A stretch of 64,000 bases of DNA, from positions 124,001 through 188,000 of the IMG/VR virus record IMGVR_UViG_3300024054_000362; one strand, 5' to 3'. A program made the position numbers and the translations under genes. The notes beneath the pieces were generated by a model. It ran no database searches, had not been told where the DNA came from, and was given only the letters and a program-made list of their open reading frames with translations. Origin of the DNA: a virus. Positions 19,130-64,000 of the stretch are shown one piece after another; position 1 is the stretch's first letter; each line of letters begins with the position of its first letter.

Positions 19130-20662
19130 ATGCGAAACCAACGAGCACCCATGCAGAAGAACTGGTTCGACGTCGACCGTAAAGGTCTCGCCAAGCTGAT
19201 CGAACGGCGCGGCAAGATCGCGCTGCTCTTCGAGCTGGTCGGCAACGCACTCGATGCGGACGGCGTGACAACGGTCGAAGTTGTGTTGGAGCCCGTAGAA
19301 GGTGTTCCACACGTCGAGGTGACCGTGTCCGACGACGCCCCCGACGGCTTCACGAACATGTCCCACGCGTGGACGTTGTTTGCAGAGTCGAGCCGGAAGA
19401 GCTACGCCAACAAGCGCGGTCGCTTCAACCTCGGCGAGAAGCTGGTCCTGGCACTCTGCAATGAGGCGTCGATCATCTCAACCAAGGATGCCGTGATGTT
19501 CGATGCACGTGGGCGTACGACCATGAAAGCGCGGCGTCCGCGTGGCACCGAGTTCTACGGCATCGCGCGCATCACGCGCACCGAGCTGGCCGAGATCACG
19601 CTCGGTCTTCGACGATTGATCGTCCCGGAGGACGTGACGATCATCGTCAACACGGAGAAGATCCCGACGCGTAAGCCGATCAAGACCGTCGAGGCTACAC
19701 TCGCCACCGAGATCGCCGACGAAGACGGCAACCTGAAGCGCAGCACACGCAAGACCACGGTGAACATCTACGAGCCGCTGCCTGGCGAGACGGCCTACCT
19801 GTACGAGATGGGGATCCCGGTCGTCGAGACCGGCGACCGGTGGCACGTCGACGTCCAACAGAAGATCCCGCTCAACATGGATCGCGACAACGTCACGCCC
19901 GCGTACTTGCGTGACGTCCGTACGCTCGTCGTCAACGCGCTTCACGAACAACTCTCGCCGGACGACGCCAACGCGACGTTCCTCAACGAGGCGCTCGCGG
20001 ATGAGAACGCCACGCCGGAGACGGTCGCGAAAGCGCTCGACCTGAAGTACGGCGAGAAGCGTGCGATCTTCGACCCGAACGACGCCGAAGCGAACATGAA
20101 TCTCACGTCGCAGGGCTACACGTTGATCAAGGGCGCGCAGCTCACCAAGGAACAGTGGACGAACGTCAAGAAGCACGACAGCGAGCGCACCAAACCGGCA
20201 GGACAGATCGCGCCGACGAAGAAGGCGCGGTTCTCACCTGACGGTGTGGACCGTTGGGTGCCGCGTGAGAAGTGGACGGCGAACATGGTGCGCGTTATCA
20301 ACTACACGCGCGACGTCGCGACGGAGTTGCTCGGTGCTCCGGTCGCCGTCAACGTTCTCTCCGACGTCACCGAGAGTTACGCCGCGTGCTTCGGTGATCT
20401 CGGCTTCGTGTTCAACCTCGGTCGGCTCGGTCACAAGTTCTTCGACCGCGCGATGAACGAGTACGCGCCAAACGACGAGGCCCCGTCGGGATCGTATCGC
20501 CCGTCCGTCGAGCTGAACCAGCTCATCATCCACGAGCTGGGACATCACTTCGAACACAATCACCTCGACGAGAAGTACCACGAGGCGCTTTGCGATCTCG
20601 GCGCACGAATGGTCAAGCTCGCACTCACCAGGCCGACGCTGTTCTACCGAGGCGTGAACTGA
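19130..20662 (+). CDS. rIIA-like GHKL ATPase fused to HExxH metalloprotease
   Basis: 510 residues from ATG 19130 (19151 also possible). GHKL motifs: N box E35-LVG-N39-AL-D42-A, G1 acidic VSDDAPDG at 67-73, G2 GRFNLGEKLVLAL at 97-109. A middle transducer-like region follows (PLNMDRDNVTPAYL). Near the C-terminus HELGHH at 468-473, with Glu near 485, is a gluzincin-like zinc site. The fold order matches the 13984 protein, though sequences are diverged. T4 rIIA, a membrane-associated phage exclusion factor, shares the ATPase part. Function of the protease half is unknown. Confidence 0.8.
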   Translation: MRNQRAPMQKNWFDVDRKGLAKLIERRGKIALLFELVGNALDADGVTTVEVVLEPVEGVPHVEVTVSDDAPDGFTNMSHAWTLFAESSRKSYANKRGRFNLGEKLVLALCNEASIISTKDAVMFDARGRTTMKARRPRGTEFYGIARITRTELAEITLGLRRLIVPEDVTIIVNTEKIPTRKPIKTVEATLATEIADEDGNLKRSTRKTTVNIYEPLPGETAYLYEMGIPVVETGDRWHVDVQQKIPLNMDRDNVTPAYLRDVRTLVVNALHEQLSPDDANATFLNEALADENATPETVAKALDLKYGEKRAIFDPNDAEANMNLTSQGYTLIKGAQLTKEQWTNVKKHDSERTKPAGQIAPTKKARFSPDGVDRWVPREKWTANMVRVINYTRDVATELLGAPVAVNVLSDVTESYAACFGDLGFVFNLGRLGHKFFDRAMNEYAPNDEAPSGSYRPSVELNQLIIHELGHHFEHNHLDEKYHEALCDLGARMVKLALTRPTLFYRGVN

Positions 20663-21233
20663 TGGACCGCATCGAAGACGGATCGATCGATCGACAGGAG
20701 CAGCGCATCTGGCGTACGTCGGAGGTCGACACAACGTCGCGTGTCGCATCAACGACCACGGACGCACTTGCGATCGCATCGGCATGCCGGAAGAACGGCT
20801 CGCGCTATGGGCGCACCTCGTGTCCGAGCACGCGTCGGCGATCTCGATGGACACGCCGCTCGAAGTGCTCATCGACATGCACACGAACGAGCACAAGGGT
20901 CCCGGTACGATTCGGAATCACGACGCGACGTTCCGCGGTGCCACGCACGTCAAGCTCGTCGAGGTGCTTAGCGAGCGCGATGACGTTTTCGAAAACATGT
21001 CCGAGGGCCAGCTTCGCGCCTTCACGAAGCGTCTGCAGGCTGAGATCGCGCGTCGACTGGGTCAGGCCATCAACGAGATCAGCGCCGACACTGAGATCGA
21101 CGAGATCTACTGGAAGGCGGCACGTGACATGTGGGAGCAAGTCTCCAAGCTCGTCGACGACTGTCGTTCCAAGATGGCGTCGCTCTCGAAGACGCTCACC
21201 AAGCCCTTCTCCGAAGAGAGCCCCAACACGTGA
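20662..21233 (+). pseudogene. Protein of unknown function, 5' end out of frame at a GATC repeat
   Basis: ATG 20662 overlaps the GHKL stop as TGATG, as genes here usually begin. The coding-like frame downstream is different, however. HLAYVGGRHNVACRINDH leads into MPEERLALWAHLVSEH (ATG 20784) and runs to 21233. Adding one more GATC to the GATC x3 tract at 20681 restores a single frame of about 190 residues beginning MDRIEDGSIDRSTGAAHL. Without it, translation can begin only at 20784 (149 aa). The C-terminal part is helical with a heptad-like stretch. Confidence 0.6.
20681..20694 (+). repeat. Tetranucleotide repeat (GATC)3 at a frame break
   Basis: GATCGATCGATCGA. One extra unit restores the reading frame of the gene around it, the arrangement of a slippage-driven on/off switch. 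A collapsed repeat in assembly would look the same. Confidence 0.55.
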
Positions 21234-21430
21234 CCGCTGCACAACGTCAAGCGGCCCTCGCTCGCGTCGAGAAGCTCGCCCGACAAGCACGCAACCTCGT
21301 CGCAGAGGACCACCTGGGGCCACCCGACTGGCGGCCGTTCATCGCAGAGCTGGCCGACGAGGTCGCCCTGCTCTGGACGTTATTGCTCAATCCGCCTGTG
21401 GCACGGACACGCGCGAAGCGAGGCAAGTAA
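21230..21430 (+). CDS. Small helical protein of unknown function
   Basis: 66 residues from GTG in a GTGA overlap. Helical throughout (RQAALARVEKLARQARNLVA, FIAELADEVALLWTLLLNPP) with a basic end. Could be membrane-peripheral. Not recognised. Confidence 0.6.
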   Translation: MTAAQRQAALARVEKLARQARNLVAEDHLGPPDWRPFIAELADEVALLWTLLLNPPVARTRAKRGK

Positions 21431-21431
21431 C

Positions 21432-21692
21432 TTGGCGAAGTACGAATTTGATATCCATATTCTGCCCAAAGACGTCGACAAGCGGCGGACGTTCACGAGC
21501 CGCCTCGACGTCGCCCTTGCGATCAACGGTTGCCGTATTACGGCCGGCGAGTACATGGTCACCATCGAACGCAAGAGCGCGGCGCAGGTTCGCAGCGAAG
21601 CCAGGTCTGCGCAGTGTCTCGGCTGCGGACGGTGGGACTGTGATCGTCCTGAATGCAAGACCAATCACAACGCCGACGGTTCAGATCCCTGA
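21432..21692 (+). CDS. Small zinc-binding protein of unknown function
   Basis: 86 residues, TTG start 1 nt after the previous stop. N-terminal beta (YEFDIHILPKDVDKRRTFTS) and a C-terminal CLGCGRWDCDRPEC cluster. Not recognised. Confidence 0.55.
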   Translation: MAKYEFDIHILPKDVDKRRTFTSRLDVALAINGCRITAGEYMVTIERKSAAQVRSEARSAQCLGCGRWDCDRPECKTNHNADGSDP

Positions 21693-21913
21693 TGCACACC
21701 GAGTACTTCATCGTCTACGACGACGGCGTTCGAGCGCGCGTCTACGGAACGCGCGAACGAACGCGTGAAGTCGCATCCGGTCGCTACGAAGATGCGCTCA
21801 GCGAACAAGGGCGGCTGCTGGGCCTTGTCGGCTGGCGCCGTCGCGAGTTCGCCGAACGTCACTACAAGCGGTTCCACTTCCCCGTGAAGATCATCGAGCT
21901 GGAGATCGCATGA
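21692..21913 (+). CDS. Small protein of unknown function
   Basis: 73 residues; ATG overlaps the previous TGA by one base. YFIVYDDGVRARVYGTRERT is a beta hairpin region; the C-terminus is beta (HFPVKIIELEIA). Not recognised. Confidence 0.6.
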   Translation: MHTEYFIVYDDGVRARVYGTRERTREVASGRYEDALSEQGRLLGLVGWRRREFAERHYKRFHFPVKIIELEIA

Positions 21914-22323
21914 AACGTATGGCCAGTTCGAAGAAGACAACGCGAACGCCTCGGCGCGACCGGGTGCGAAGTACCGAACAGCGGCGATTCACTGCGACCG
22001 CTCAACGACAAGAAGAGCAACTCCGACAACTCAACGTCGTCGCCGCAACTACCATCGGCTTCAGTCGTGCAGCGGCCGAAGTTCTTCCTCCACCAACGGT
22101 GGCGTTCCACTTCGGGCTCGTAGGACACGGCTTCGAGATTCACTTCTTGGTCTTCTTCACAGCTTGGCTGTGCGGCCTTACTGCGTGCGATGAACCAGAA
22201 CAGCCCGATCCGCGACTTCCAGGCGTGGGAATTCTTCCGCGCCGGTTGGGAGGCCAAGGAGGCCGCCGACGAGCGCGGGAAGCACACGACGCGCCGTTGA
22301 TCGCAGGCAAGGGGATCCCGTGA
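21910..22323 (+). CDS. Putative protein of unknown function, poorly supported C-terminus
   Basis: 137 residues fitting exactly between neighbours by ATGA and GTGA overlaps. The N-terminus is basic and helical, then a hydrophobic stretch (IHFLVFFTAWLCGLTAC). The last 40 residues are Gly/Arg-rich and may be out-of-frame reading, because a better-looking short frame (22190-22300) overlaps them. Confidence 0.45.
   Translation: MKRMASSKKTTRTPRRDRVRSTEQRRFTATAQRQEEQLRQLNVVAATTIGFSRAAAEVLPPPTVAFHFGLVGHGFEIHFLVFFTAWLCGLTACDEPEQPDPRLPGVGILPRRLGGQGGRRRAREAHDAPLIAGKGIP
22190..22300 (+). CDS. Possible 36-residue protein overlapping the 21910 gene
   Basis: MNQNSPIRDFQAWEFFRAGW followed by a charged helix, in a different frame from the larger ORF. 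Residue composition looks natural, but no RBS is evident. Either this or the end of the 21910 gene is likely not real. Confidence 0.35.
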   Translation: MNQNSPIRDFQAWEFFRAGWEAKEAADERGKHTTRR

Positions 22324-22835
22324 GCGCTGAGATCGACACCAGCAAGGTCGCCGTCAAGCCGGCATGCCCCAAGCCGTGCAGCTCGTGCCCGTGGCGTCTC
22401 GCGAACCAAGGCTCCAAGCCCGATCCGCACAAGTTCTACACGAAGGCCAACCTCGCGCGACTATGGCGCGGCCTTCGCGACGGTGCGCGGATGTCGTGTC
22501 ACCCGACCGATCCGCGCATAAGCGAATTCGCCGGCTACGAAGCGCTCGCCGATCGCGAGGACACGCACGAGTGCGCGGGTGCGTTGACGTTACAGCAGCG
22601 CGAGCTGGTGGAATTTCAGGACATGGCAGCGGCCGATCCGAAAGGTCCGACGATGAAGACCTACCGCAAGCTCCGTTCGAAGGGCCTGACGCGGAACGGC
22701 CTCGTCGCGATCTTCGAACGCGCCATGTTCAACGGCACCGGGCTCGCCGGTACGAAGATGTCCACGCCGGATCTGAACGACCAAGAGATCGGCTACGACG
22801 TCCTCGGCGTGTGGAAAGCTCGAAAGGCGCCGTGA
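22320..22835 (+). CDS. CPWR-motif protein (DUF6283-like)
   Basis: 171 residues from GTG in a GTGA overlap. N-terminal PCSSCPWR, then RMSCHP and ECAG, the spaced Cys/His set of a phage family I associate with DUF6283. A second member is at 28941. The cysteines probably hold a metal, possibly an Fe-S cluster. Role unknown. Confidence 0.65.
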   Translation: MSAEIDTSKVAVKPACPKPCSSCPWRLANQGSKPDPHKFYTKANLARLWRGLRDGARMSCHPTDPRISEFAGYEALADREDTHECAGALTLQQRELVEFQDMAAADPKGPTMKTYRKLRSKGLTRNGLVAIFERAMFNGTGLAGTKMSTPDLNDQEIGYDVLGVWKARKAP

Positions 22836-23200
22836 TGGCTCTTGATGCGTGGCGTCCGCATCGAGAGCTTTCCCATGAAGCGGGTAGCAGTTGGTATCCC
22901 TTCGTGATGCGACTCAAGCTGAGTTGTTGGCCCGAGACCGAACGAACGATGCTCCGCGGTCAGGACGGTTGGGCCTTCAACGCCGCTGTTCGATTTCAAG
23001 AAGCGGCTTGCAAACTGGCCGAAACCGACGAGCAGGTCTTCTGGTCCAGCTACTACCTACTCGCGTGCCTCATCGAGCGTGCACGTACCGACATGACCTT
23101 CCTCGAAGCACTTGAAGCCTTGGCGATTGCTCACCTCTATGGTGGACTGACCGTATCGCAGGTGACGCAGCAATTTCGATCGTTGGAGGTGTGGCCATGA
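22835..23200 (+). CDS. Helical protein of unknown function
   Basis: 121 residues from ATG 22835 (GTG 22832 also in frame). Helical with many aromatics (WYPFVMRLKLSCWPETERTM, QVFWSSYYLLACLIERARTD). Not recognised. Confidence 0.6.
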   Translation: MALDAWRPHRELSHEAGSSWYPFVMRLKLSCWPETERTMLRGQDGWAFNAAVRFQEAACKLAETDEQVFWSSYYLLACLIERARTDMTFLEALEALAIAHLYGGLTVSQVTQQFRSLEVWP

Positions 23201-23400
23201 AGCTGTTCAAGGGACGACTGACCGAGTGCGAGCACGGCAACTTGATCCTGACGGATATCGAGCCAGTTCGTGACAGCGACGTCGCGTACAGCGCACCTGA
23301 CGCTGACAGGATCTTGGGTTCGTCGACGATTCACTGGAGCCGTGCGTACGTCGACAACTGGGATGCGAACTTCGGTGAGAAGACCGACGTCGTGAACTGA
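23197..23400 (+). CDS. Small protein of unknown function
   Basis: 67 residues, ATGA overlap with the preceding gene. CEHGNLILTDIEPV and a Trp-containing C-terminus. Not recognised. Confidence 0.55.
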   Translation: MKLFKGRLTECEHGNLILTDIEPVRDSDVAYSAPDADRILGSSTIHWSRAYVDNWDANFGEKTDVVN

Positions 23401-23825
23401 TGAAATCGCTCGTCTTCCAGACCGACGCGACGACCTACGAGCTGGGCTTACAAGAACAGCACAAGCTCGTCACCGGACCGCGCGGTTTGGAAGTTCGAAC
23501 GCGTGTGGTGTTGATCGTCCCGCGTCGAACGCTGACGAGCATGCTCACCGAAGTCGACGACGGCACGCAAGAAGATGACATCCGTGAAGCGATCAAAGCG
23601 GCATCTCTCGCCGACAACTGGACACTCGCCAGTGAGATTGCACAGCGCTACGGTCTGGTTGTTTGTTTGGCGTGCGCTGCTGACGTCGGTCAGCGGCCGA
23701 CATGGCGTCTCCATCGACTGATGCGCGAGCTACGCGATCTCGACAACCAACCGGCGTTCGCCGCAGACTGGGGCGAGATCTGCGGCTCGTGTGCCGTCCA
23801 ACTCAAGGAGCAATACAGTGGGTAA
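23400..23825 (+). CDS. Member of a three-copy Cys-containing protein family
   Basis: 141 residues. EDDIREAIKAASLADNWTLA then SEIAQRYGL and CLACAADV, with a C-terminal CGSC, match the pattern in the genes at 3311 and 56677. An N-terminal beta domain (VVLIVPRRTLTSML) is extra here. One zinc site is likely. Function unknown. Confidence 0.65.
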   Translation: MKSLVFQTDATTYELGLQEQHKLVTGPRGLEVRTRVVLIVPRRTLTSMLTEVDDGTQEDDIREAIKAASLADNWTLASEIAQRYGLVVCLACAADVGQRPTWRLHRLMRELRDLDNQPAFAADWGEICGSCAVQLKEQYSG

Positions 23826-24147
23826 AGAGTGGCCGTACATTCAGTCGAGCGGCGCCGATGTCAGCGCCAAGAAGGCGCGCGAGCGTTTCACGTCGCTCGA
23901 AGCCGAACTGGCTGCGGTCGGCGCCAAGATCAACGTGCCGATCCTGATGATCCACGACGAGATTCGTTTCGATGTCGATGTTCCCGAGGGCATGGAGGCG
24001 CAGGTCGCCGCGATCATGGACAAGTACTTCCCGAATCCGACGCTGGGGCTACGCGAGCGCGTCGGTCAGATCATGTCGCAGGTCGGCCCTACTCCGTTGA
24101 CCCTCGATGTCACCCCCAGGCACGGTCAAACGTGGGAGCGTCTTCAC
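23818..24147 (+). CDS. Stand-alone C-terminal palm fragment of a family A DNA polymerase
   Basis: From GTG 23818, with AAGGAG 8 nt upstream, about 110 residues align with the end of PolA: IQSSGADVSAKKA (compare IQASGADLINLG in the 61080 polymerase), motif C as MIHDEIRFDVDVPEG with the catalytic H-D-E, and the terminal PLTLDVTPRHGQTW. No thumb, fingers or exonuclease is attached. After TWERLH the frame stays open but reads as the shadow of the next gene and runs into the LuxR-type gene at 24310, so the true end is unclear. It may be a relic of a second polymerase. Confidence 0.65.
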
Positions 24148-24313
24148 CGGTCTGCTCGACACGCTTCGTGGCGGGTTTCCGAAACTGCATCTGTACGTCG
24201 AGAACGTCTTCGAAGACCGTTTCCAGAGCTTCCTCAAGGGCTACGGATTCGTGTTGGTCGACGAGACCTCGTGGCCGCCGTCGTTCATTCTGCCGGCAGG
24301 AGTTCCGTCATGA
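24107..24313 (+). CDS. Small protein of unknown function
   Basis: 68 residues. Helix then beta pattern (FTGLLDTLRGGFPKLHLYV, YGFVLVDETSWPPSFILP). ATGA overlap with the LuxR-type gene supports it. It overlaps the end of the polymerase fragment in another frame. Confidence 0.55.
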   Translation: MSPPGTVKRGSVFTGLLDTLRGGFPKLHLYVENVFEDRFQSFLKGYGFVLVDETSWPPSFILPAGVPS

Positions 24314-24723
24314 GCCTAGAGCACGACGATCGTCACAACCCGCGCGGCTTCGAGAACCCAAACGACGTCGCGCGCATGCACGGCGAACAGTTCTGCGGTG
24401 CCGTCCCCGAAGGCGAGGGTAGTTACCCGCGCCACTGTTTCCACGGCACAGGCGAGAACCTTGCGTGCTGCTGGTGCGGTGACTGCTTCGTCGGCGACAA
24501 CGCACACAGCGTCCACGGCGACAACTTCCACCCATTGACGCCTCGCGAGGTCGAGGTCGTCACGTTGATGGCCGAGGGTCTTTCGAACAAGCTGATCGCC
24601 GAGCGCCTCGACATCAGCGACCACACAGCCAAGTTCCACGTGCGCGCGGTAACCAAGAGGCTCGGGCAACAGACGCGTACGGGTGCAGCTGTCGCTGCGA
24701 TTCGTCGAGGGATCGTTCCATGA
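24310..24723 (+). CDS. LuxR/NarL-type HTH protein with Cys-rich N-terminus
   Basis: 137 residues. The C-terminal 60 form a GerE-type HTH (LTPREVEVVTLMAEGLSNKL, IAERLDISDHTAKFHVRAVT). The N-terminal part has CGAVPEG and CCWCGDC, probably a metal site in place of the usual receiver domain. Likely a DNA-binding regulator of phage genes. Confidence 0.75.
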   Translation: MSLEHDDRHNPRGFENPNDVARMHGEQFCGAVPEGEGSYPRHCFHGTGENLACCWCGDCFVGDNAHSVHGDNFHPLTPREVEVVTLMAEGLSNKLIAERLDISDHTAKFHVRAVTKRLGQQTRTGAAVAAIRRGIVP

Positions 24724-24989
24724 CCGCCGAGAACAAACCGAACCGCGCGGCCAGCAAGTCGATCCAGGCACTGGTCACGCCTGAAGAAGCGGACGCCATC
24801 GAAGTGATCCGCCGCGATCGCAAGATGAGCTTGCGAGACCTCGTCGTCAGCACGATTCTTGGTTCAAAACCGAGCGACGAGATCAAGCGCATCTGCGAGC
24901 TGGAAGCGGCTGTCGTCAACCTCAAAGCCGAGATCGCCGAGCTGCGTCAGACGGTGCTCTATTCATCCTATGGATCGAGGAACCCATGA
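24720..24989 (+). CDS. Small helical, possibly RHH-like DNA-binding protein
   Basis: 89 residues. SIQALVTPEEADAIEVIRRD then KMSLRDLVVSTILG resembles a ribbon-helix-helix unit, followed by a leucine-zipper-like helix (ICELEAAVVNLKAEIAELRQ). A dimeric DNA-binding protein is plausible. Confidence 0.5.
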   Translation: MTAENKPNRAASKSIQALVTPEEADAIEVIRRDRKMSLRDLVVSTILGSKPSDEIKRICELEAAVVNLKAEIAELRQTVLYSSYGSRNP

Positions 24990-25447
24990 TCACCGATGAA
25001 GCGCGCATGACCGTGGAGGCGTTGAACGCGCTCTGCGAAGACGCTCTCGCCGATGATGTTCGAGCTACGCCCGGCCCGTGGGAGTGGTGGACGAGCAACT
25101 CGGTTCGACGTCTGAGTGCGCGGGGCGACGGTGATGTTCTTCATGGATCGAAGCATCCGCTCGACGGTGTCGTCGACATCGTCGGCAACGACCATGACAA
25201 GAACTTCATCGCAGCAGTGCGTACGCGTGAACCGCAAATCGCACAGGCACTTCGCGGCATCTTGCAGATCTTCGAGCACTGCTTCGAGCGCAACCAACTG
25301 TCAGCCGACGGGTTCATTGAGATTCTCGAAGCGAACCGTCGGCTACGTCTCAAGCTCCTCGAAGCTTGCGACCTCGCCGAGAAACTCATCGGGGACCGCG
25401 ATGACCCTCGCATCATCGCACTTCGCCAGGAGGCAGCAAAACGATGA
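24986..25447 (+). CDS. Ead/Ea22-like phage protein
   Basis: 153 residues. The pattern TPGPWEWW near the start, then a central KNFIAAVRTREPQIAQALR, is the layout of small phage proteins of the Ead/Ea22 type, whose function is not established. C-terminus helical. Overlaps neighbours by 4 nt each side. Confidence 0.55.
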   Translation: MITDEARMTVEALNALCEDALADDVRATPGPWEWWTSNSVRRLSARGDGDVLHGSKHPLDGVVDIVGNDHDKNFIAAVRTREPQIAQALRGILQIFEHCFERNQLSADGFIEILEANRRLRLKLLEACDLAEKLIGDRDDPRIIALRQEAAKR

Positions 25448-26232
25448 CGAGCCCACTTCGACTTGGTGTAGCGCTGCCAGCATATGGTTTTCAACTCGAC
25501 GTCGGTCACGCTGCCATGTGGGTGGGCGTGGGCGCCGCCCTCTTCCAGGCTGCGGACAAGGTCGAGTTGGTATCGTTCGTCGAGTACCACGTCAACGGTG
25601 TCGATCTTTGTCGTAACACGGCGCTGTACGACGCGATCGAGGCGGGTTGCGACTGGGTATTCATGATCGACGCGGACACGTTTCATCGTTCGCGTGTTGA
25701 AGGCATCGCTGATGCAGGTGTCGACATCGTTCAAATGATTCGCGACGCTGATCGCAACGCGACGGCCAAGGTCAACGACAAGGGCGACGTCGTGTTGACG
25801 CCGATCCAAGAGCTTTCGAATCGAAACGGTGTCGCGCTCGTGGGGGCACCCGTTCGAGGACGCGGCGGGGACGCGGGCGGTGTTTGCGTCAAATCGGTTC
25901 GCAGCGCGCCGAGCCCGGACGAACCTGGTAGGGACTACTGGGCGACGGGCGAATCGATGGACCTCCAAGATCTCGTCGGCAAGGTCCAGCCTGTTGGCCG
26001 AATCGGCGGGGCCTGCATCGCCGTCAACTGTGGCTGGTTTCGTCGGTTCTGGCCCAAGGCTCCGTGGTTCGTGATGGAGCACGAGTATGCCGAGGGTCGA
26101 CCCTTCAACAAGCGCGGCGAGGACTACTCGATCTGCGACGGCATCTGGTCGCGCGGCGGCGTCGTACTCTGCGATGGTCGCTTCGTGCCGTCGCACGTTG
26201 CGCGTCGCAAGCTCGTCGGAGAGGACTCGTGA
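25444..26232 (+). CDS. Putative GT-A-fold glycosyltransferase
   Basis: 262 residues. LRLGVALPAYGFQLDVG, a VDLCRNTALYDAIEAGCDWV helix and FMIDADTFH with a D-A-D metal/nucleotide-sugar motif near residue 77 match phage glycosyltransferase-like proteins of the GT-A fold. VMEHEYAEGRPFNKRGEDYS supplies the distal acidic region. Substrate unknown: candidates are host surface sugars, virion proteins or modified DNA bases. Confidence 0.65.
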   Translation: MTSPLRLGVALPAYGFQLDVGHAAMWVGVGAALFQAADKVELVSFVEYHVNGVDLCRNTALYDAIEAGCDWVFMIDADTFHRSRVEGIADAGVDIVQMIRDADRNATAKVNDKGDVVLTPIQELSNRNGVALVGAPVRGRGGDAGGVCVKSVRSAPSPDEPGRDYWATGESMDLQDLVGKVQPVGRIGGACIAVNCGWFRRFWPKAPWFVMEHEYAEGRPFNKRGEDYSICDGIWSRGGVVLCDGRFVPSHVARRKLVGEDS

Positions 26233-26528
26233 AGCTCGTCCGGCTTTGGCTGATCGGCTGCCTAGCCGCAGGCGGCTGCAACCTCCTGTTCGAGGCGACG
26301 GCAGCCATCGACGCAACACCTGACGGCGACGGTGCTGCAACGCTGATCGATGCTTCACCGGATGGTCCTGTCGACGCCGGCCCGGACGCTCCACCGGACG
26401 CTTTTGCGTGCACGGTGCACTCTCAGTGCAGCTCGCAGACGCCCGGTACGTGTTGTGTCAGCCCGGGACCCGGCGGCATCTGTGCTGAGGGCATCGTCAT
26501 CGGTGGTGTTTGCGTTCCGCCCACCTGA
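26229..26528 (+). CDS. Lipoprotein with Asp/Pro/Ala linker
   Basis: 99 residues from GTG. A signal peptide ends in the lipobox LAAGGC (VRLWLIGCLAAGGC), so it should be lipid-anchored. The linker is built of D-A-x-P-D-G units (DASPDGPVDAGPDAPPDA), then a Cys-rich C-terminus (CSSQTPGTCCVSPGPGGICA). That linker style is common in Myxococcota lipoproteins and is the best host clue here. A surface-exclusion or lysis role is possible. Confidence 0.75.
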   Translation: MKLVRLWLIGCLAAGGCNLLFEATAAIDATPDGDGAATLIDASPDGPVDAGPDAPPDAFACTVHSQCSSQTPGTCCVSPGPGGICAEGIVIGGVCVPPT

Positions 26529-26602
26529 TCGCGCACACGATCGGCCATCGCAACACGCTCTTGACTTGTTTAGCTATACCCGGCATCCTTCTTGTCAAGA
26601 GC
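26528..26602 (+). promoter_or_regulatory. Palindrome and long inverted repeat before 26640 gene
   Basis: GATCGCGCACACGATC (26528-26543) is a variant palindrome at the end of the lipoprotein gene. Downstream, GCTCTTGAC (26558-26566) and GTCAAGAGC (26594-26602) form a perfect 9-bp inverted repeat with a 27-nt loop. Either operator pair or terminator-like stem; no T-tract follows. Confidence 0.5.
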
Positions 26603-26639
26603 AGAAAGGGCCGCCTTCCAGCATCGCGGCGTTGCGCGC

Positions 26640-27167
26640 ATGAGTAGTACCGTTCGAGTTTTGAATTCCGTTGAGACCTTACGTACGACCGCTCACGACG
26701 TCGCGAACGTCTTGTGCACCAGCGACATCGTAGGAGAGTGCTACCTCGGCGGTAAGCACACCTGCTTCGCAAGGCAGGGACGGAAGCCGTTGCCCTTGTA
26801 CAAGGTCGCCGAGTTGTGCGAGCGCTGCGCGGCGACATGGCATGCCGTCATGGCCGCATCACTACTCGACTCGGTCGTGATCGGTCAGCAGTTCCTCGTC
26901 GGAGACAGCGTGACCGTTATGGCGTCGACCGGCGTTGCCGTCCACGGAAAGTCCGTGCCAGGACGTCACAAGCCCGGATCTGAAAACAGTGATCTAGTTC
27001 TGCCTGTCGAGATTCGCGCGATCGCGCCGAATCCTGCGGGCGCATACACGTCTGAAGAGCGCCGCCTGCTCGCAAAGTTCTACCAATCTGCACCACGCGC
27101 TGCGAAGTCAGCGTTCAACGCACGCTTCCACGTCAAGGCCTGGCAGATGCGGGACTGGGCGAAATAG
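26640..27167 (+). CDS. Protein of unknown function with Cys pair
   Basis: 175 residues. CTSDIVGECYLGGKHTCFAR and ELCERCAATW suggest a metal site in the first half; the C-terminus is helical and basic. Starts a new operon after the 26528-26602 control region. Not recognised. Confidence 0.6.
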   Translation: MSSTVRVLNSVETLRTTAHDVANVLCTSDIVGECYLGGKHTCFARQGRKPLPLYKVAELCERCAATWHAVMAASLLDSVVIGQQFLVGDSVTVMASTGVAVHGKSVPGRHKPGSENSDLVLPVEIRAIAPNPAGAYTSEERRLLAKFYQSAPRAAKSAFNARFHVKAWQMRDWAK

Positions 27168-27176
27168 GGAGAGACC

Positions 27177-27584
27177 ATGCCGAACCTCAAGCACCTCGCG
27201 ACGAATTCTCGCGTCCGAAACATTTTTCAGAAGCACCTCAGCGCGCTGACGCGCGATCTCGTCGCACTTTCGCAGATGCAGACGCAAGAGCTAACCGAAG
27301 AGCTGACAACTGCGATGCTCGCGAACTGGGGGCTCACGAACGAAGATCTGCAGCTCCAATCTGTCGGTCCGGTGGTGGAGTTGCATGCGCTCGTGCCATC
27401 GGCGTTGATCTACGACACCGAAACGCGACGATGGACGTGCCCGCGCTGTCACGTGTTCTCGGATCACCGACGAAGATCCGTGACAGCGCACCTGCGTTTC
27501 TGCAAGGCTGAGCCTCCTGTGGCATCGATCCCGCTGCGAAATGTGCCGCGGAAGAAGCCCCGCCCCGTCAAGAAGACCACATGA
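27177..27584 (+). CDS. C2H2-type zinc-finger-like protein
   Basis: 135 residues. Helical N-terminal 80 residues, then a CPRCHVFSDHRRRSVTAHLR finger ending in FC, and a Pro/Lys-rich tail. Lies immediately before the recombinase-like gene with ATGA overlap, so it may be a DNA-binding partner. Confidence 0.6.
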   Translation: MPNLKHLATNSRVRNIFQKHLSALTRDLVALSQMQTQELTEELTTAMLANWGLTNEDLQLQSVGPVVELHALVPSALIYDTETRRWTCPRCHVFSDHRRRSVTAHLRFCKAEPPVASIPLRNVPRKKPRPVKKTT

Positions 27585-28516
27585 CCACACTCGAAACGGC
27601 TGTCACGCGAAGCAGAAACCTCCGGCCTCGGACGAAGCAGTTGTACTTGCAACACGTCCGTGCGTTCCTGACCTTCGTTCGCGAAACGAAGGCGGGTACG
27701 GATACTCAGAAGGACATCGCCGAGGTTGCGATCACGGATGCTGACTTCACGCAGGAAGTTGTTGTCGCGTGGTGCGACGACATGCGCAGCCGGAAGATCA
27801 AGCCACAGAGCGTCAACGTCGCGCTCAACGCACTTCGTTACGCGGCAGATCGCGCCGACTGCAAGAAGTTCGTCGACGGTGTCGACCGTCTTCCTGTGCG
27901 ACAACATCGAACGCCTTCACAAGCGAAGGCTGCTCGTGCTCTCACGTGGAGCGAAGGCAAGCGTTTGGTCGCCGCGTGTGACGGGTTGCGAGGCCGGGAT
28001 CTTCGCGACAACGCCATCATCACTCTCGGTTTGCGCACAGGAATGTTGCGTTTTTCGATGTGTCAACTCACGTTCGAGGATATCGAGGACAACTCGTTGA
28101 CCTTCACCAAGAAAGGCGGCGGACGGCACTCGATCGTTCTCGACGCCGTAACCTATGCTGCCTTGCGTGCGTGGATGGACTGGCTGACCGCGCGTGATGA
28201 GGAACAAGGACCCGTGTTTCGTTCTCTCGGACGGCAACGCATCAGCCTCGACGACGACGTGTCGATCGGAGCGCAGCTGACGCCCGACGGGCTATACCGC
28301 GCACTTCAACTACGCGCCAAGGAAGCAGGTCTCGGGGATCTTCGACCACACGTTTTTCGAAAGACGTTTTTGGCATGGGTCAAGCGTGCAGGCGCGAGGC
28401 CACAACAGATCGAGGCAGTGACGGGTCACAAGTCTGACGGTATCGGCGATAGCGACGACGCGGGTGAAGAGGCAGCAAACCTGCTGCTGCCCGATTGGGA
28501 CGGAAACCTCAAGTGA
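27581..28516 (+). CDS. Tyrosine-recombinase-fold protein lacking the catalytic tyrosine
   Basis: 311 residues. An N-terminal SAM-like core-binding domain (YLQHVRAFLTFVRETKAG) is followed by the catalytic fold: TGMLRFSM around Arg I, FTKKGGGRHSIVL with the Lys strand, HVFRKTFLAWVK for H-x-x-R, and TGHKS for the second His. Where the nucleophilic Tyr should follow there is only GIGDSDDAGEEAANLLLPDW, with no Tyr to the end. It may be a dead integrase, a DNA-binding protein, or act with a Tyr supplied in trans. Confidence 0.8.
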   Translation: MTTLETAVTRSRNLRPRTKQLYLQHVRAFLTFVRETKAGTDTQKDIAEVAITDADFTQEVVVAWCDDMRSRKIKPQSVNVALNALRYAADRADCKKFVDGVDRLPVRQHRTPSQAKAARALTWSEGKRLVAACDGLRGRDLRDNAIITLGLRTGMLRFSMCQLTFEDIEDNSLTFTKKGGGRHSIVLDAVTYAALRAWMDWLTARDEEQGPVFRSLGRQRISLDDDVSIGAQLTPDGLYRALQLRAKEAGLGDLRPHVFRKTFLAWVKRAGARPQQIEAVTGHKSDGIGDSDDAGEEAANLLLPDWDGNLK

Positions 28517-58998: not shown

Positions 58999-61065
58999 CT
59001 ATCGTGAGGCTGATGCGAGGAACTTGCCTGCGTCGGCGAGGACTTTCGAAAAGCCGACGAACGGAAGCGAACGGCGCATCATGCCGCCGTACGACTTTGC
59101 GAGGATGCGCGTGTCGAGAAGCACGAACACACCGCGATCCGTCGTACTGCGAATCAGTCGACCGGCACCTTGCGCCAACTCGATGGCGGCGCGCGGGAAG
59201 TAGAAGTCGTCCCAGAAGGTGTCTGGGTGCTTCTGTTTCATCATGTCGACGAGCGGATCGTTGAACGATTCGAGGGGCAGCTTGTCGATCACGAGGCACG
59301 ATAGTGCTTCGCCTTGAATGTCCAGCCCGACCCAAAAGCTCTTAGTCGCGAGGAGGACCGAGTCGGTCTGTTCGCGGAACATGTGCGCGAGGGTCTTGTT
59401 GGGCGCGTCGCCCTGAACCAGCAACGGGTAGTCGATGTTGCCTTGCAACTGCTCCGCGACGTACTTCAGGCGCCGCCACGACGTGAACAGGACGAGCGTG
59501 CGCCCTTTGCAATCACGGATGAGCGTCTTGATCGCTTCAGCGGCCTTCTGGTTGTAGATCGCGTCGTTTTCTGGAATCGGCCACGGGATGCCGAGCGGTA
59601 CGATGAACTTGGCTTGTGTCGCGAAGTTGAAGGGGCTCGGTACACGCACACCGATGACGTTGGCGCCGGGGACGTTGGTGCCGCGTTGGGCGAACTGCCA
59701 GCTGTGCAGCCGGACGTCTTCGTTGCCGGCGTTGACTTTGTCGGTGCCGGGTAAAACCGCTTGGCGGACGAGGCCCAGCTCGTCGCGGATGAAGTCGAAC
59801 GTTCCGCCGCTCGTCATCGTCGCAGACACGCAGATCACCGACGGGTACCGTTCGAAGACGCGCTCGGAAAGATGCTGTCCGACGCGGTATGGGACGGCGC
59901 GAAGCCGGACGGTAGCAGCCGTGACGCGCTGATCGTCGTTTGGCTTGTCGATCCAGTACGCCGTCGTGTCGTTGAGCTGCCCTGCAAATTCCTTGATTTG
60001 GACGACGAACGTCTCAGCACGGTCGCGACAGGACTTTCGCATCGCACACGTTCCACAGAGCGCGGGCGTGTCACATCCACAGCCGCCCTGCGCAGCCCGC
60101 ATCGCATCGTCAAGCACGTCGACGATTTCGATCGTCGCCACGCAATCGACTTCAGCGACGCGGGGTGATTCCATGTTGAGCGCGTAGCGCGCGACGTCTT
60201 CGAAGAAGGGGCTCGCGGTGTCGCGCAACGCCTTGGCGAGTCCGCGATCGCCGAGATACTTCGAGATGTCGGATGCGAGCTGGTTGATGTGGGTCAGGCC
60301 CAGTTCGCGACCGAAACATCGCCGCGCGATGTTGGCAGCCTCGTGAGCCTCATCGAAGATGACGGTCTGGAAGTTCGTCCACGTCGGATCAGTTGTGTGG
60401 AGCAACTTGGAGAAGAACAGGTCGTAGTTGGCGACCACCACGGTGGCGTTCTCTGCGTTGTCGGCGGCGCGTTCGGCGAAGCACGACTCGTAGTAGGCAC
60501 ACGCGCGACGCCCGCAGCGTTCACCAGACACCGAGAAGACGTTCCACGTCCGTTGTGAGACAGCCGGTGGCGCCTCGGACTGATCGCCGGTAGGGGTGGC
60601 TGTTCCCCATGCGCTGAGCGCTTGCGCTTCGATGTTTCCGTCGAGATCGAGTCCCGGAATCGGTGCACCACTGTCGAACATCGCCATCTCGCGCTGGCAG
60701 AGGTAGTTCGCACGGCCCTTGAGGAGCGCGAAACTGAAGTCAATCTCTTCGTCGGCGGCGGCGAAGGCTTTCTCGACGACCGGAAGATCCTTGTCGATCA
60801 GCTGCTCCTGCAGCGCCTTGTTCGCCGTGACGACGAGGACGCGTCGACCCTTGTGGACGGCGTGCCGGATGGCCGGAATCAAGTACGCCATCGTTTTGCC
60901 GGTTCCAGTCGGTGCTTCTCCAAGGAGAACGAGGCGACCTTCGATCGCCTCGTCGACGGCCTGTGCAAGCTGCACTTGACCTTCACGCTTGGAGTACCCC
61001 GGGATCACGGTCGCAAGCGCACCCGTGAAGTCGTCGAACATGTTGTCGATGTAGTTCGTGCTCAT
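58999..61065 (-). CDS. DinG/XPD-family superfamily 2 helicase
   Basis: 688 residues. Walker A in LLGEAPTGTGKTMAYLIPAI near 50, a Cys cluster CGRRACAYYESC for the 4Fe-4S site, DEAH in VIFDEAHEAANIARR, and motif VI QGAGRLIRSTTDRGVF near the end. A second Cys set (GGCGCDTPALCGTC, CRD) lies in the arch region. Iron-sulphur 5'-3' helicases of this family unwind forks, D-loops or R-loops. Ends 14 nt before tmk and follows the polymerase by 14 nt. Confidence 0.9.
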   Translation of the reverse strand: MSTNYIDNMFDDFTGALATVIPGYSKREGQVQLAQAVDEAIEGRLVLLGEAPTGTGKTMAYLIPAIRHAVHKGRRVLVVTANKALQEQLIDKDLPVVEKAFAAADEEIDFSFALLKGRANYLCQREMAMFDSGAPIPGLDLDGNIEAQALSAWGTATPTGDQSEAPPAVSQRTWNVFSVSGERCGRRACAYYESCFAERAADNAENATVVVANYDLFFSKLLHTTDPTWTNFQTVIFDEAHEAANIARRCFGRELGLTHINQLASDISKYLGDRGLAKALRDTASPFFEDVARYALNMESPRVAEVDCVATIEIVDVLDDAMRAAQGGCGCDTPALCGTCAMRKSCRDRAETFVVQIKEFAGQLNDTTAYWIDKPNDDQRVTAATVRLRAVPYRVGQHLSERVFERYPSVICVSATMTSGGTFDFIRDELGLVRQAVLPGTDKVNAGNEDVRLHSWQFAQRGTNVPGANVIGVRVPSPFNFATQAKFIVPLGIPWPIPENDAIYNQKAAEAIKTLIRDCKGRTLVLFTSWRRLKYVAEQLQGNIDYPLLVQGDAPNKTLAHMFREQTDSVLLATKSFWVGLDIQGEALSCLVIDKLPLESFNDPLVDMMKQKHPDTFWDDFYFPRAAIELAQGAGRLIRSTTDRGVFVLLDTRILAKSYGGMMRRSLPFVGFSKVLADAGKFLASASR

Positions 61066-61079
61066 GCTGCTCCCCTAGT

Positions 61080-64000
61080 TCAGTTGACTTCCGCCCAAGT
61101 TTTTCCGGCCTTGGCGTCGACGGGAAAATTCATCTTGTTGCCGTTGTACTCGACCTCGCGCGTGAAGCACTTCACGACGAGGGCCTTGAGCAGATCCTGA
61201 TCGTCTTCGTCGCACTCGAAGACTACGGCATCGTGGATCTGAAGGATCGGCCACGCGCCCTCGGGCAGGAGCGGCATGATATCCGCGAGCCCCAGGTTGA
61301 TAAGGTCAGCGCCCGACGCCTGAATCGGGAAGTTGACGACTTCGGTCAGGTCGAACTGCTTGATCGGAAAACATCGACGACGTCCGAGGATCATGCTTCG
61401 GATCTCGCCTTGCTGATCCGCCATCCGTTGCATGTCCTGGTGCCACTTGGTGACGCCCGGCATGCGGGTCTTCATCACCTGCACCATCTTGCCGATCATG
61501 CCGATGGTGACCTGCGGGTAGTCGCGGACGACGGCCTTCCACAACGTCTCGATCGAGCCGGCGTAGAACGCGCCGTACTCCGGGCGCTTGATCAGGTCGC
61601 GGCGGACCTTGCGTTCGTCGACAGGAACCGTGTCGAAGTCCGGCCAGACGATGCGCGCGAACTCGCTATGGATGTCCTTGTCCTTGTGGAAGATGTCGAG
61701 GAGGAACGGGTCACCTGACATGAGCGCGATCAGGCGTGCTTCGAGTTGCTTCGCATCGAAAGCGACGAACGCACGCCCGTACGGTGCGACCACCTGGCTA
61801 CGGAGGTTGGGGCGTCCCTTCTTTTTGTCGGCCTTGGGCCAGTTCTGTGCTTGTGGTCCTTCGGAGCGCCATCGTCCAGTGATGGCGTGGACGCTCCATC
61901 GTGGGTGAACACGCAGCCACGGATCGGCGAAGCCGTAACGGATCTTGCCGGGGATCGGTCGGCCTTCCTTGTCGAGGACCGGGCGATCGAGCATGCGTTC
62001 ACAGAACGTCGACAGGAGCTTTGCGTTCTCGCGGTAGTTGAGGAGCGCTTGGATTTCCGGGTACTGCGAGAACGCTTCGAGGACGTCTTTCTTTGTCGAG
62101 ATTCGACCACTGGCCGTCTGAAGACTGAGCGGCACACCGCAGGCCTTGAGGAAGGCCACGATGTGATCGCCCGAGTCGATCATGAAGTTGAACTTGCTAG
62201 CCTCGATCTCGCCGAGGCGTTTCGAAATACGTTCGTCAAGATCGATCGGATCGTGCTTTCGCGTACGCCGCGCCTGTTCGAAGGCGAGCCGTTCCTTGAA
62301 GCGCGCCAGGATCGTCGGATCCTGAATTTTGTCGTCCAGCTCTTTTTTGGCCGCATCGATGTTGGCGCGGAAGCCTTTGCGGAGTTGCCCGTTGATTTCT
62401 GGATCGATCGGGACGCCCTTCATGTGCATCACGCTGGCGGCGTGCGCCATCGCGAGATCCACCTTGTAGGTCTTCTCGGCGTTCGACTCCTTGATGATGA
62501 GCGCGATCGGACCTTCGATACGTGCCGTCGCAAGCGTGTCGCGTGCGTTGTAGGGCAGCAGCTCGTCGAGCGTTCCTTGACCATGGCGGTATTCGGCCTT
62601 CCACGGCGGAGCGGCGTAGAACTGCGTCAGGACACGCTGAAGGTTGTGTGCGAGGCCTGGGAACGCACTGTGATGCATGAGCATCGTGCAGTGGATTTCG
62701 CCGTTGATCTGAAAACCGTGACGTTCCAAGACAGGTACGTCGTAGATCCGGTTGTGGAAGATCTTGACGACGGACTCGTCGGCGAACAGTTTGTCGAGCG
62801 GTTCGAGAACCTCCGGGATGCACAGCTCCCACGCGATGCTGATCGCGCGCTCGAACGTGGCGAGCCCGAGCGCCGACATGTTGGCGTTGTAAGGTGAGAG
62901 CGCGGTGTGTTGCTTCGTGTTTTCGACGAAGGTCTCGGTGTCACACGCGAACCGACCTGAACGGTATGCGTCGACGACGAAGTCGGCGACGAGCTTCTTC
63001 GCCCGCTGCCAATCTTCTAGTTCGACCTGAATGTCGTCGGTGAACTTGATGTCGGCGCCCTGCGAGATCAGGTTCACCTTGGCCGTGTCGTAGAGCAGGT
63101 TCCAGAAGGCGAGGTCGACCGTGTGTGACCCACCACCGCCACTCGCACCGCCGCCACGAAGGATCGCAGCGGGGTGAATGCTCGGGATCACCGCACGCGT
63201 CCGTCCGCTGTTGTCGCAGTCGACCTCGTGGTACGAGCCCGCCATCTGCGTGATCGAGAACTTCTCGTTGCCAGTGAGTTGTTGGGCGGCGTGAGCCCCG
63301 AGGGCGAGGACGGGCACGCCGGGGAACTGTGCGATCTCTTGTTTGAGTCGGTCGCCACAAGCTTGACGTGCTTGCTTCTTGATGGCGTCGGAGGCGCCGT
63401 GCGGCGGTTGGCAGTTGTGAACGACGGCTCCGGGCGTGAGGAAGTTGTGCGTGCCTTCCACTTCGAGGCAGTACACGGTCGCGCCTTCGCCTTTTCGTCG
63501 GGGGCTCGTACAGACGCTCTCGGCCTGATCGTAAAAGGCCGCTGCTGGAATGGGCTCGTATGTTTGCGGGTCGTACTTGCCGCGATCTTCAGGTCGAAGT
63601 TTGTACGCCATCACAGGTGGAACGTAAGTCGCGATCGCAGCACTGAATCGCGCAGTCCCTTCGACCGTGAATCGGATACGGCCGCGCCGAACGCGGTTTT
63701 CGAAACCGCGTGCACGTAGTACTGCAGAGGCGTGAAGAAGATCTGGTTCGGGAAAGGCGACGCCACAAATCTCGGCGAGCGGACGGTGCCCGTTGCGGAT
63801 CTGCATGTACCCATCGTCTAGGTACCAGACGGCAAACAACAGCTCGTCCGCCGAAGCGAGAACAGTCGATGGGATTCGTTTCTTGCCTTCGGGGTAGAAG
63901 AGGTCGCGTGTTGCATGTCCCCATGCACCGGCAGCTGTACGGAACCCGTACTTAGCTTGCTCATTTTGTCGGGGTGGCTGTTGGAACAGTGACACGCCGA
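61080..64000 (-). CDS. DNA polymerase I with N-terminal uracil-DNA glycosylase domain split by an intein; 5' end outside window
   Basis: At least 971 residues; the frame is still open at base 64000. Residues 1-194 are the C-terminal end of an intein: a LAGLIDADG-type motif (LFAVWYLDDGYMQ) and the splice block VYCLEVEGTHNFL ending VVHN, then Cys195. The extein resumes CQPPHGAS, the motif C-x-P-P of family 4 UDG, with VLALGAHAA and IPSIHPAAIL. The exonuclease is DEDDy type: CDTET (351), HNRIYD (414), YNARDT (482). The polymerase has motif A FDAKQLEARLIA, motif B RRDLIKRPEYGAFYAG and motif C QIHDAVVFE, where canonical HDE reads HDA. UDG-PolA fusions are known in SPO1-like phages. Confidence 0.88.
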   Translation of the reverse strand, partial: GVSLFQQPPRQNEQAKYGFRTAAGAWGHATRDLFYPEGKKRIPSTVLASADELLFAVWYLDDGYMQIRNGHRPLAEICGVAFPEPDLLHASAVLRARGFENRVRRGRIRFTVEGTARFSAAIATYVPPVMAYKLRPEDRGKYDPQTYEPIPAAAFYDQAESVCTSPRRKGEGATVYCLEVEGTHNFLTPGAVVHNCQPPHGASDAIKKQARQACGDRLKQEIAQFPGVPVLALGAHAAQQLTGNEKFSITQMAGSYHEVDCDNSGRTRAVIPSIHPAAILRGGGASGGGGSHTVDLAFWNLLYDTAKVNLISQGADIKFTDDIQVELEDWQRAKKLVADFVVDAYRSGRFACDTETFVENTKQHTALSPYNANMSALGLATFERAISIAWELCIPEVLEPLDKLFADESVVKIFHNRIYDVPVLERHGFQINGEIHCTMLMHHSAFPGLAHNLQRVLTQFYAAPPWKAEYRHGQGTLDELLPYNARDTLATARIEGPIALIIKESNAEKTYKVDLAMAHAASVMHMKGVPIDPEINGQLRKGFRANIDAAKKELDDKIQDPTILARFKERLAFEQARRTRKHDPIDLDERISKRLGEIEASKFNFMIDSGDHIVAFLKACGVPLSLQTASGRISTKKDVLEAFSQYPEIQALLNYRENAKLLSTFCERMLDRPVLDKEGRPIPGKIRYGFADPWLRVHPRWSVHAITGRWRSEGPQAQNWPKADKKKGRPNLRSQVVAPYGRAFVAFDAKQLEARLIALMSGDPFLLDIFHKDKDIHSEFARIVWPDFDTVPVDERKVRRDLIKRPEYGAFYAGSIETLWKAVVRDYPQVTIGMIGKMVQVMKTRMPGVTKWHQDMQRMADQQGEIRSMILGRRRCFPIKQFDLTEVVNFPIQASGADLINLGLADIMPLLPEGAWPILQIHDAVVFECDEDDQDLLKALVVKCFTREVEYNGNKMNFPVDAKAGKTWAEVN

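What the first reader, a model, noticed from the sequence alone, without database searches (positions are those of the whole stretch)
23818..24147. Free-standing DNA polymerase I palm fragment with an intact catalytic motif C
A gene with a good RBS encodes only the last ~110 residues of a PolA: IQSSGADVSAKKA, MIHDEIRFDVDVPEG and PLTLDVTPRHGQTW. It keeps the canonical H-D-E, which the full polymerase at 61080 has changed to H-D-A. It could be a relic of a replaced polymerase, or a trans-acting palm module. Its frame runs on into a LuxR-type gene without a stop, another oddity.
Basis: partly seen in the sequence, partly recalled or inferred. Interest (0 to 1): 0.7.

Follow-up and report, generated by a model that had tools for sequence, protein, structure and literature searches.

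The report
Leftover tail end of polymerase gene
A large bacteriophage that has a complete DNA polymerase also carries, in a variable stretch of its genome, only the last hundred or so residues of a second, distantly related polymerase; it is most likely a stranded remnant that cannot copy DNA.

Summary
The observation mostly holds. Window 23818-24147 (+) encodes about 107 residues resembling the C-terminal end of the family A polymerase palm: IQSSGAD, the motif C hairpin with HDE, a helix, and a final G-x-T-W. Stock libraries see this weakly (Pfam E 0.021), but a profile of 22 phage PolA palms scores it 25.6 bits; the next unrelated ORF of the 221-kb record reaches 7.5 and shuffled/reversed ORFs 9.4 at most. 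The only other PolA sequence in the record is the complete polymerase at 61080.

Both 'oddities' dissolve. The main polymerase's HDA is shared by its relatives, and that position varies widely among phage PolAs, so nothing needs rescue. The run into the LuxR-type gene is a chance open frame: codon usage leaves the fragment's frame at about 24112-24142 and runs in the +1 frame to TGA 24311-24313; the LuxR-type gene has its own start, as in a relative.

In the closest syntenic relative the slot holds 13.85 kb of other genes. Best explanation: a truncated, probably chimeric polA remnant with a borrowed ribosome-binding site, perhaps translated, not catalytic. A trans-acting palm module is not excluded but has no positive support.

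The parts
23805..23810 (+). Ribosome-binding site AAGGAG, 7 nt before GTG; lies in the conserved end of the preceding gene (23400-23825)
   Evidence: Sequence; the homologous gene end in G004 also carries AAGGAAG before its own, different next gene
23818..24147 (+). PolA palm C-terminal fragment, about 107 residues, GTG start, no stop of its own
   Evidence: Palm profile 25.6 bits, residues 8-107 to model 10-90 of 93; hhalign 95.5%; Pfam DNA_pol_A E 0.021
23839..23859 (+). IQSSGAD: start of PolA homology, residue 8 of the ORF (N-x-x-IQ-x-x-x-x-D region of PolA)
   Evidence: Profile alignment; alignment A1
23947..23991 (+). Motif C hairpin MIHDEIRFDVDVPEG (HDE at 23953-23961)
   Evidence: Profile alignment; predicted strand-turn-strand in the AF2 model
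24094..24135 (+). PLTLDVTPRHGQTW: PolA-like last strand and C-terminal G-x-T-W
   Evidence: Profile alignment; weak on its own, about 3 bits
24112..24142 (+). Zone where the coding frame changes by +1; holds a C5 run (24113-24117) and CCC AGG C (24115-24121)
   Evidence: Codon-usage change point, 50 nats with one shift against 4.9 without; frame scan
24107..24313 (+). Small +1-frame ORF, coding-like, ends in TGA overlapping the next ATG; no known relatives
   Evidence: Frame scan; no family or phage match
24310..24723 (+). Independent GerE/LuxR-type helix-turn-helix gene, not fused to the fragment
   Evidence: Pfam GerE E 1.9e-15; 69% identical homologue in G004 with its own ATG
61080..63995 (-). 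The phage's complete polymerase (end of an intein with LAGLIDADG, UDG-like part, 3'-5' exonuclease, PolA), motif C HDA
   Evidence: Pfam and PHROGs; relatives share the HDA

Best explanation
The ORF is a remnant of the 3' end of a PolA-family polymerase gene that landed, by illegitimate recombination, in a hypervariable accessory slot of a large phage. It uses the ribosome-binding site at the end of the preceding gene, and probably the start and first few codons of the gene that once stood there, so it may be translated. It encodes only the last part of the palm (helix, motif C hairpin, helix, final strand), without exonuclease, thumb, fingers, motif A or motif B. It therefore cannot polymerise DNA and most likely does nothing or is on its way out; its frame has no stop of its own. 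Shown here: the homology, the absence of other polymerase pieces in the record, the synteny of the slot, and the change of coding frame. Inferred: the recombination origin, translation, and lack of function.
For: Palm homology over residues 8-107. No motif A or B: the Pfam model and a 902-position PolA profile find only the main polymerase elsewhere. In syntenic G004 the same slot holds 13.85 kb of other small genes. The first gene of that slot in G004 starts at the same place with MERPYNHES against VGKEWPYIQSS here (13/18 bases, 6e-5 of the window's 18-mers reach that), and PolA homology begins right there, at residue 8. The fragment's frame loses coding character at 24112-24142 with no stop. 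No copy in 25 related or pattern-matched records or in the collections searched.
Against: Within the fragment codon usage is as good as in real genes (0.31 nats per codon), motif C is intact, and it has a good ribosome-binding site; debris often looks worse, unless it is young. The start-codon match with G004 is short. Lack of relatives rests on pattern-based searches that miss distant copies.
Confidence: 0.57

Rival explanations
1. A retained, translated, non-catalytic small protein: a stand-alone half-palm acting in trans, for example as a decoy that disturbs a host or rival PolA, or as a DNA-binding accessory. It may carry a C-terminal extension if ribosomes shift +1 at CCC AGG C.
For: Ribosome-binding site, native codon usage, intact motifs. 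The +1 frame downstream is coding-like, and AGG is rare in this phage (1.8 per 1000 codons).
Against: No relative carries it; no known palm decoy; half a palm is unlikely to fold alone (AF2 pLDDT 52, though the alignment was almost empty). An indel explains the frame change equally well.
Confidence: 0.2
2. The C-terminal piece of a second, split PolA whose other part lies in the unsequenced portion of the genome, joined as a protein complex or by trans-splicing.
For: Split polymerases exist in phages: MEP401 gp13/gp15 (PMC10580990) and Aeromonas phage gp43A/B (PMC2988022). The record is linear and may be incomplete.
Against: No PolA N-terminal part in 221 kb. The break runs through the palm after motif B, unlike MEP401, whose C-terminal piece begins at motif A. 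No intron near the fragment in Rfam. A complete polymerase is present.
Confidence: 0.1
3. Not a polymerase relative at all: an orphan small protein that happens to resemble the palm motifs.
For: Curated libraries give only E 0.02-0.2. Foldseek with the low-confidence model shows no polymerase among the 50 matches listed. A chance HDE match of 13-14 bits exists in G004.
Against: Three collinear motifs in one profile alignment at 25.6 bits; 19.7 bits remain without the first 20 residues and 15.9 for the motif C stretch alone. Predicted secondary structure follows the palm order.
Confidence: 0.13

Closest known systems
Family A DNA polymerase (Pfam PF00476), C-terminal palm
   Same: IQ-x-x-x-x-D, motif C hairpin with HDE, following helix, last strand with G-x-T-W, in order and at similar spacing
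   Different: Everything before the IQ motif is missing, motifs A and B included; about 15 extra residues between motif C and the last strand
Split PolA of Methylophilales phage MEP401 (gp13 and gp15; PMC10580990)
   Same: The PolA C-terminal part is a separate gene
   Different: In MEP401 both parts are present and the cut lies before motif A, so gp15 (236 aa) keeps motifs A, B and C; here the partner is absent and the cut lies inside the palm
Split family B polymerase gp43A/gp43B of Aeromonas phages 25 and 44RR (reviewed in PMC2988022)
   Same: A polymerase piece encoded as a separate gene in a phage
   Different: Another polymerase family; the two pieces are complementary, and those of phage 25 co-purify with polymerase activity
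PolA of the phage in IMGVR_UViG_3300045974_000806 (L095/L096)
   Same: Closest local match around motif C: TIHDEISFDVD against MIHDEIRFDVD
   Different: A full-length polymerase (701-aa frame); little similarity outside motif C

Membership tests
Family A DNA polymerase (PF00476) | Palm C-terminal motifs, motif C included | tested here: met
   Palm profile 25.6 bits against 9.4-9.8 at most in controls; below Pfam's own cut-off (14.2 against 34.3 bits)
Family A DNA polymerase (PF00476) | Motif A aspartate and motif B (O-helix) present in the same protein | tested here: not met
   Homology begins at model position 706 of 902, after both
Split PolA (as in MEP401) | Complementary PolA N-terminal part elsewhere in the genome | tested here: not met
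   None in the 221-kb record; the record may be incomplete
Split PolA (as in MEP401) | Intron, intein or endonuclease at the break | tested here: not met
   No Rfam intron in 20000-28000; the flanking gene 23400 has no Pfam match
Gene remnant (pseudogene fragment) | Truncation and loss of a proper end of the frame | tested here: met
   Only the C-terminal part; coding frame lost at 24112-24142 without a stop
Gene remnant (pseudogene fragment) | Absence from the same place in relatives | tested here: met
   G004 has 13.85 kb of other genes there; only one syntenic relative available
Gene remnant (pseudogene fragment) | Relaxed selection | not testable with these tools
   No second copy was found, so substitution rates cannot be compared

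The most novel reading that the evidence does not exclude
A stand-alone PolA half-palm that is translated and acts in trans, for instance as a decoy against a host or rival PolA, possibly with a C-terminal extension made by +1 frameshifting at CCC AGG C.
Probability: 0.1. Interest if true: 0.6.

Novelty: new member of a known kind. Interest (0 to 1): 0.18.

Why it matters
As it stands this is gene debris in a phage accessory region, useful mainly as a caution: an intact catalytic motif in a small ORF does not show an active module, and in GC-rich phage DNA a long open frame does not show a gene fusion. If the fragment proved to be kept and translated it would be a minimal palm protein acting in trans, for which I know of no precedent.

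Tried and rejected
Missing polymerase parts: the Pfam model and a 902-position profile of phage PolAs found only the main polymerase in the record. A weak hit lying just before the fragment in model position (L004_12907-13167, 8.9 bits) lacks the GRRR motif and was rejected as chance.

A candidate second fragment in G004 (L039, PF00476 E 0.005) belongs to a family of small paralogues whose other members lack HDE, so chance.

HDE in the fragment making good the HDA of the main polymerase: rejected, since HDA is lineage-wide and E, A, S, Q and D all occur there in phage PolAs.

Fusion with the LuxR-type gene: rejected on codon usage and on the homologue's own start.

Group I intron near the fragment: none. 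Foldseek on the AlphaFold model: uninformative at pLDDT 52; a three-row alignment did not improve it. Scans for the +1 ORF found nothing.

Full report
Setting. The window is positions 124001-188000 of a linear 221,422-base IMG/VR virus record, 62% GC. A 797-aa protein of the record (L006:16524-18914) has its best GenBank matches in phages of about 130-160 kb (Aeromonas phiA8-29, Klebsiella May, Dickeya LIMEstone-type) and is 66-71% identical in two IMG/VR records, called here G004 (195.8 kb) and G003 (91.4 kb). This is a large tailed phage; its host is unknown.

Is the fragment real? Libraries point to PolA only weakly: Pfam DNA_pol_A E 0.021, profile 301-354 of 381; PHROG 17 E 0.017; NCBIfam E 0.21. 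Such values need a control. I took the palm C-terminus of 22 phage PolAs and built a profile. Against 4227 ORFs of the record the main polymerase scores 93 bits, the fragment's ORF 21.6 (E 3.7e-5) and the next ORF 7.5; eleven shuffled or reversed copies of the ORF set reach 9.4 at most. The 110-residue fragment alone scores 25.6 bits, residues 8-107 aligned to model 10-90 of 93. It keeps 19.7 bits without its first 20 residues, and hhalign gives 95.5%. A single-sequence AlphaFold2 model has low confidence (pLDDT 52), but its elements follow the palm order: helix 17-33, strand 37-45, HD at the turn, strand 48-54, helix 60-70. I put PolA homology at about 87%.

What is missing. A catalytic PolA needs motifs A and B besides C (established knowledge of the family). 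The fragment begins after both. The Pfam model, a full-length PolA profile and a palm alignment find no other polymerase piece in the record except the complete enzyme at 61080-63995; the one suggestive weak hit is chance. The record is linear, so an unsequenced part remains possible.

HDE against HDA. The complete polymerase reads IHDA. So do its closest relatives in G003 and G004 (IHDAVVFECDEDDQ) and the more distant L038 (IHDACVYECDEDD). Across the phage PolAs examined the third residue is E, A, S, Q or D. The change is old and tolerated, and does not call for another protein to supply a glutamate.

The run into the LuxR-type gene. Codon usage trained on 21 long genes of the record shows where coding lies: a reading with one +1 change of frame scores 50 nats, against 4.9 for reading straight on, with the best change points between 24112 and 24142. 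From there to TGA 24311-24313 the +1 frame looks coding, and the LuxR-type gene starts at its own ATG 24310. Its 69% identical homologue in G004 begins with its own ATG and no polymerase sequence before it. The long open frame is thus a coincidence, helped by high GC. The change itself may be a one-base indel (natural or from assembly) in the C5 run 24113-24117, a lost stop with an overlapping downstream gene, or a +1 shift at CCC AGG C; one record cannot decide. The last PolA-like residue, W at 24133-24135, still lies in the first frame, which favours a change after it; the codon data allow that too.

Surroundings. In G004 the genes before the fragment (22320, 22832, 23197, 23400) lie in the same order at L046 3703-5499, and three after it (24310, 25444, 27581) from L046 19349 to L047 2074. 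Between them G004 has 13.85 kb of other small genes, where the window has only the fragment and the small +1 ORF, about 0.5 kb. The slot is variable. The first gene of that slot in G004 starts at the same spot behind the conserved gene and reads MERPYNHES, close to VGKEWPYIQSS here (13 of 18 bases, a level reached by 6e-5 of the window's 18-mers). PolA homology begins at residue 8. The simplest history is that a polA 3' end was joined behind the start of a resident gene. The match is short; I treat it as suggestive only.

Relatives. No copy of the fragment was found in GenBank phages, plasmids, IMG/VR or GTDB species genomes. Of 25 related or pattern-matched virus records 15 have a palm match, each in a full-length polymerase frame; one further match (G004, 13.6 bits) sits in a small paralogous family whose other members lack HDE. 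These scans need exact short peptides or related records and would miss distant copies.

Reading. The fragment is best seen as gene debris: a truncated, probably chimeric polA end that may still be translated. Split polymerases are known in phages (MEP401, PMC10580990; Aeromonas phage 25, PMC2988022), but there both parts are present, and in MEP401 the C-terminal piece keeps motifs A, B and C. Here the cut runs through the palm, no partner is found, and a complete polymerase exists. Good codon usage and an intact motif within the fragment speak against old debris, hence 0.2 for a retained non-catalytic protein.

Noticed in passing
window 61080-63995 (-), continuing in L010 1-945 (-): The main polymerase carries an intein with a LAGLIDADG endonuclease in its UDG-like N-terminal part, where relatives L036 and L037 read straight through ATLCQPPSGATD; UDG-like, exonuclease and PolA domains are fused.
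   Followed up: partly
IMGVR_UViG_3300022719_000152 (G022) 122992-125415: A PolA that matches Pfam in four pieces within one open frame, with about 317 extra residues at profile position 127: probably an intein.
   Followed up: no
L005 19285-19678 (virus record 59285-59678): Five tRNA-Leu genes in tandem with different anticodons (taa, gag, cag, tag, caa).
   Followed up: no
L039 387-1674 (G004 about 52.8-54.1 kb): Three neighbouring small paralogous proteins sharing a GLxPADLDxxxG domain of unknown function; one has an HDE by chance, which gives a false DNA_pol_A hit.
   Followed up: yes
L006 16524-18914 (virus record 76524-78914): A 797-aa protein of PHROG 2426 (unknown function; called von Willebrand factor A type in Dickeya phages), 49-71% identical in 12 IMG/VR records of up to 436 kb: a good marker for this phage group.
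   Followed up: partly
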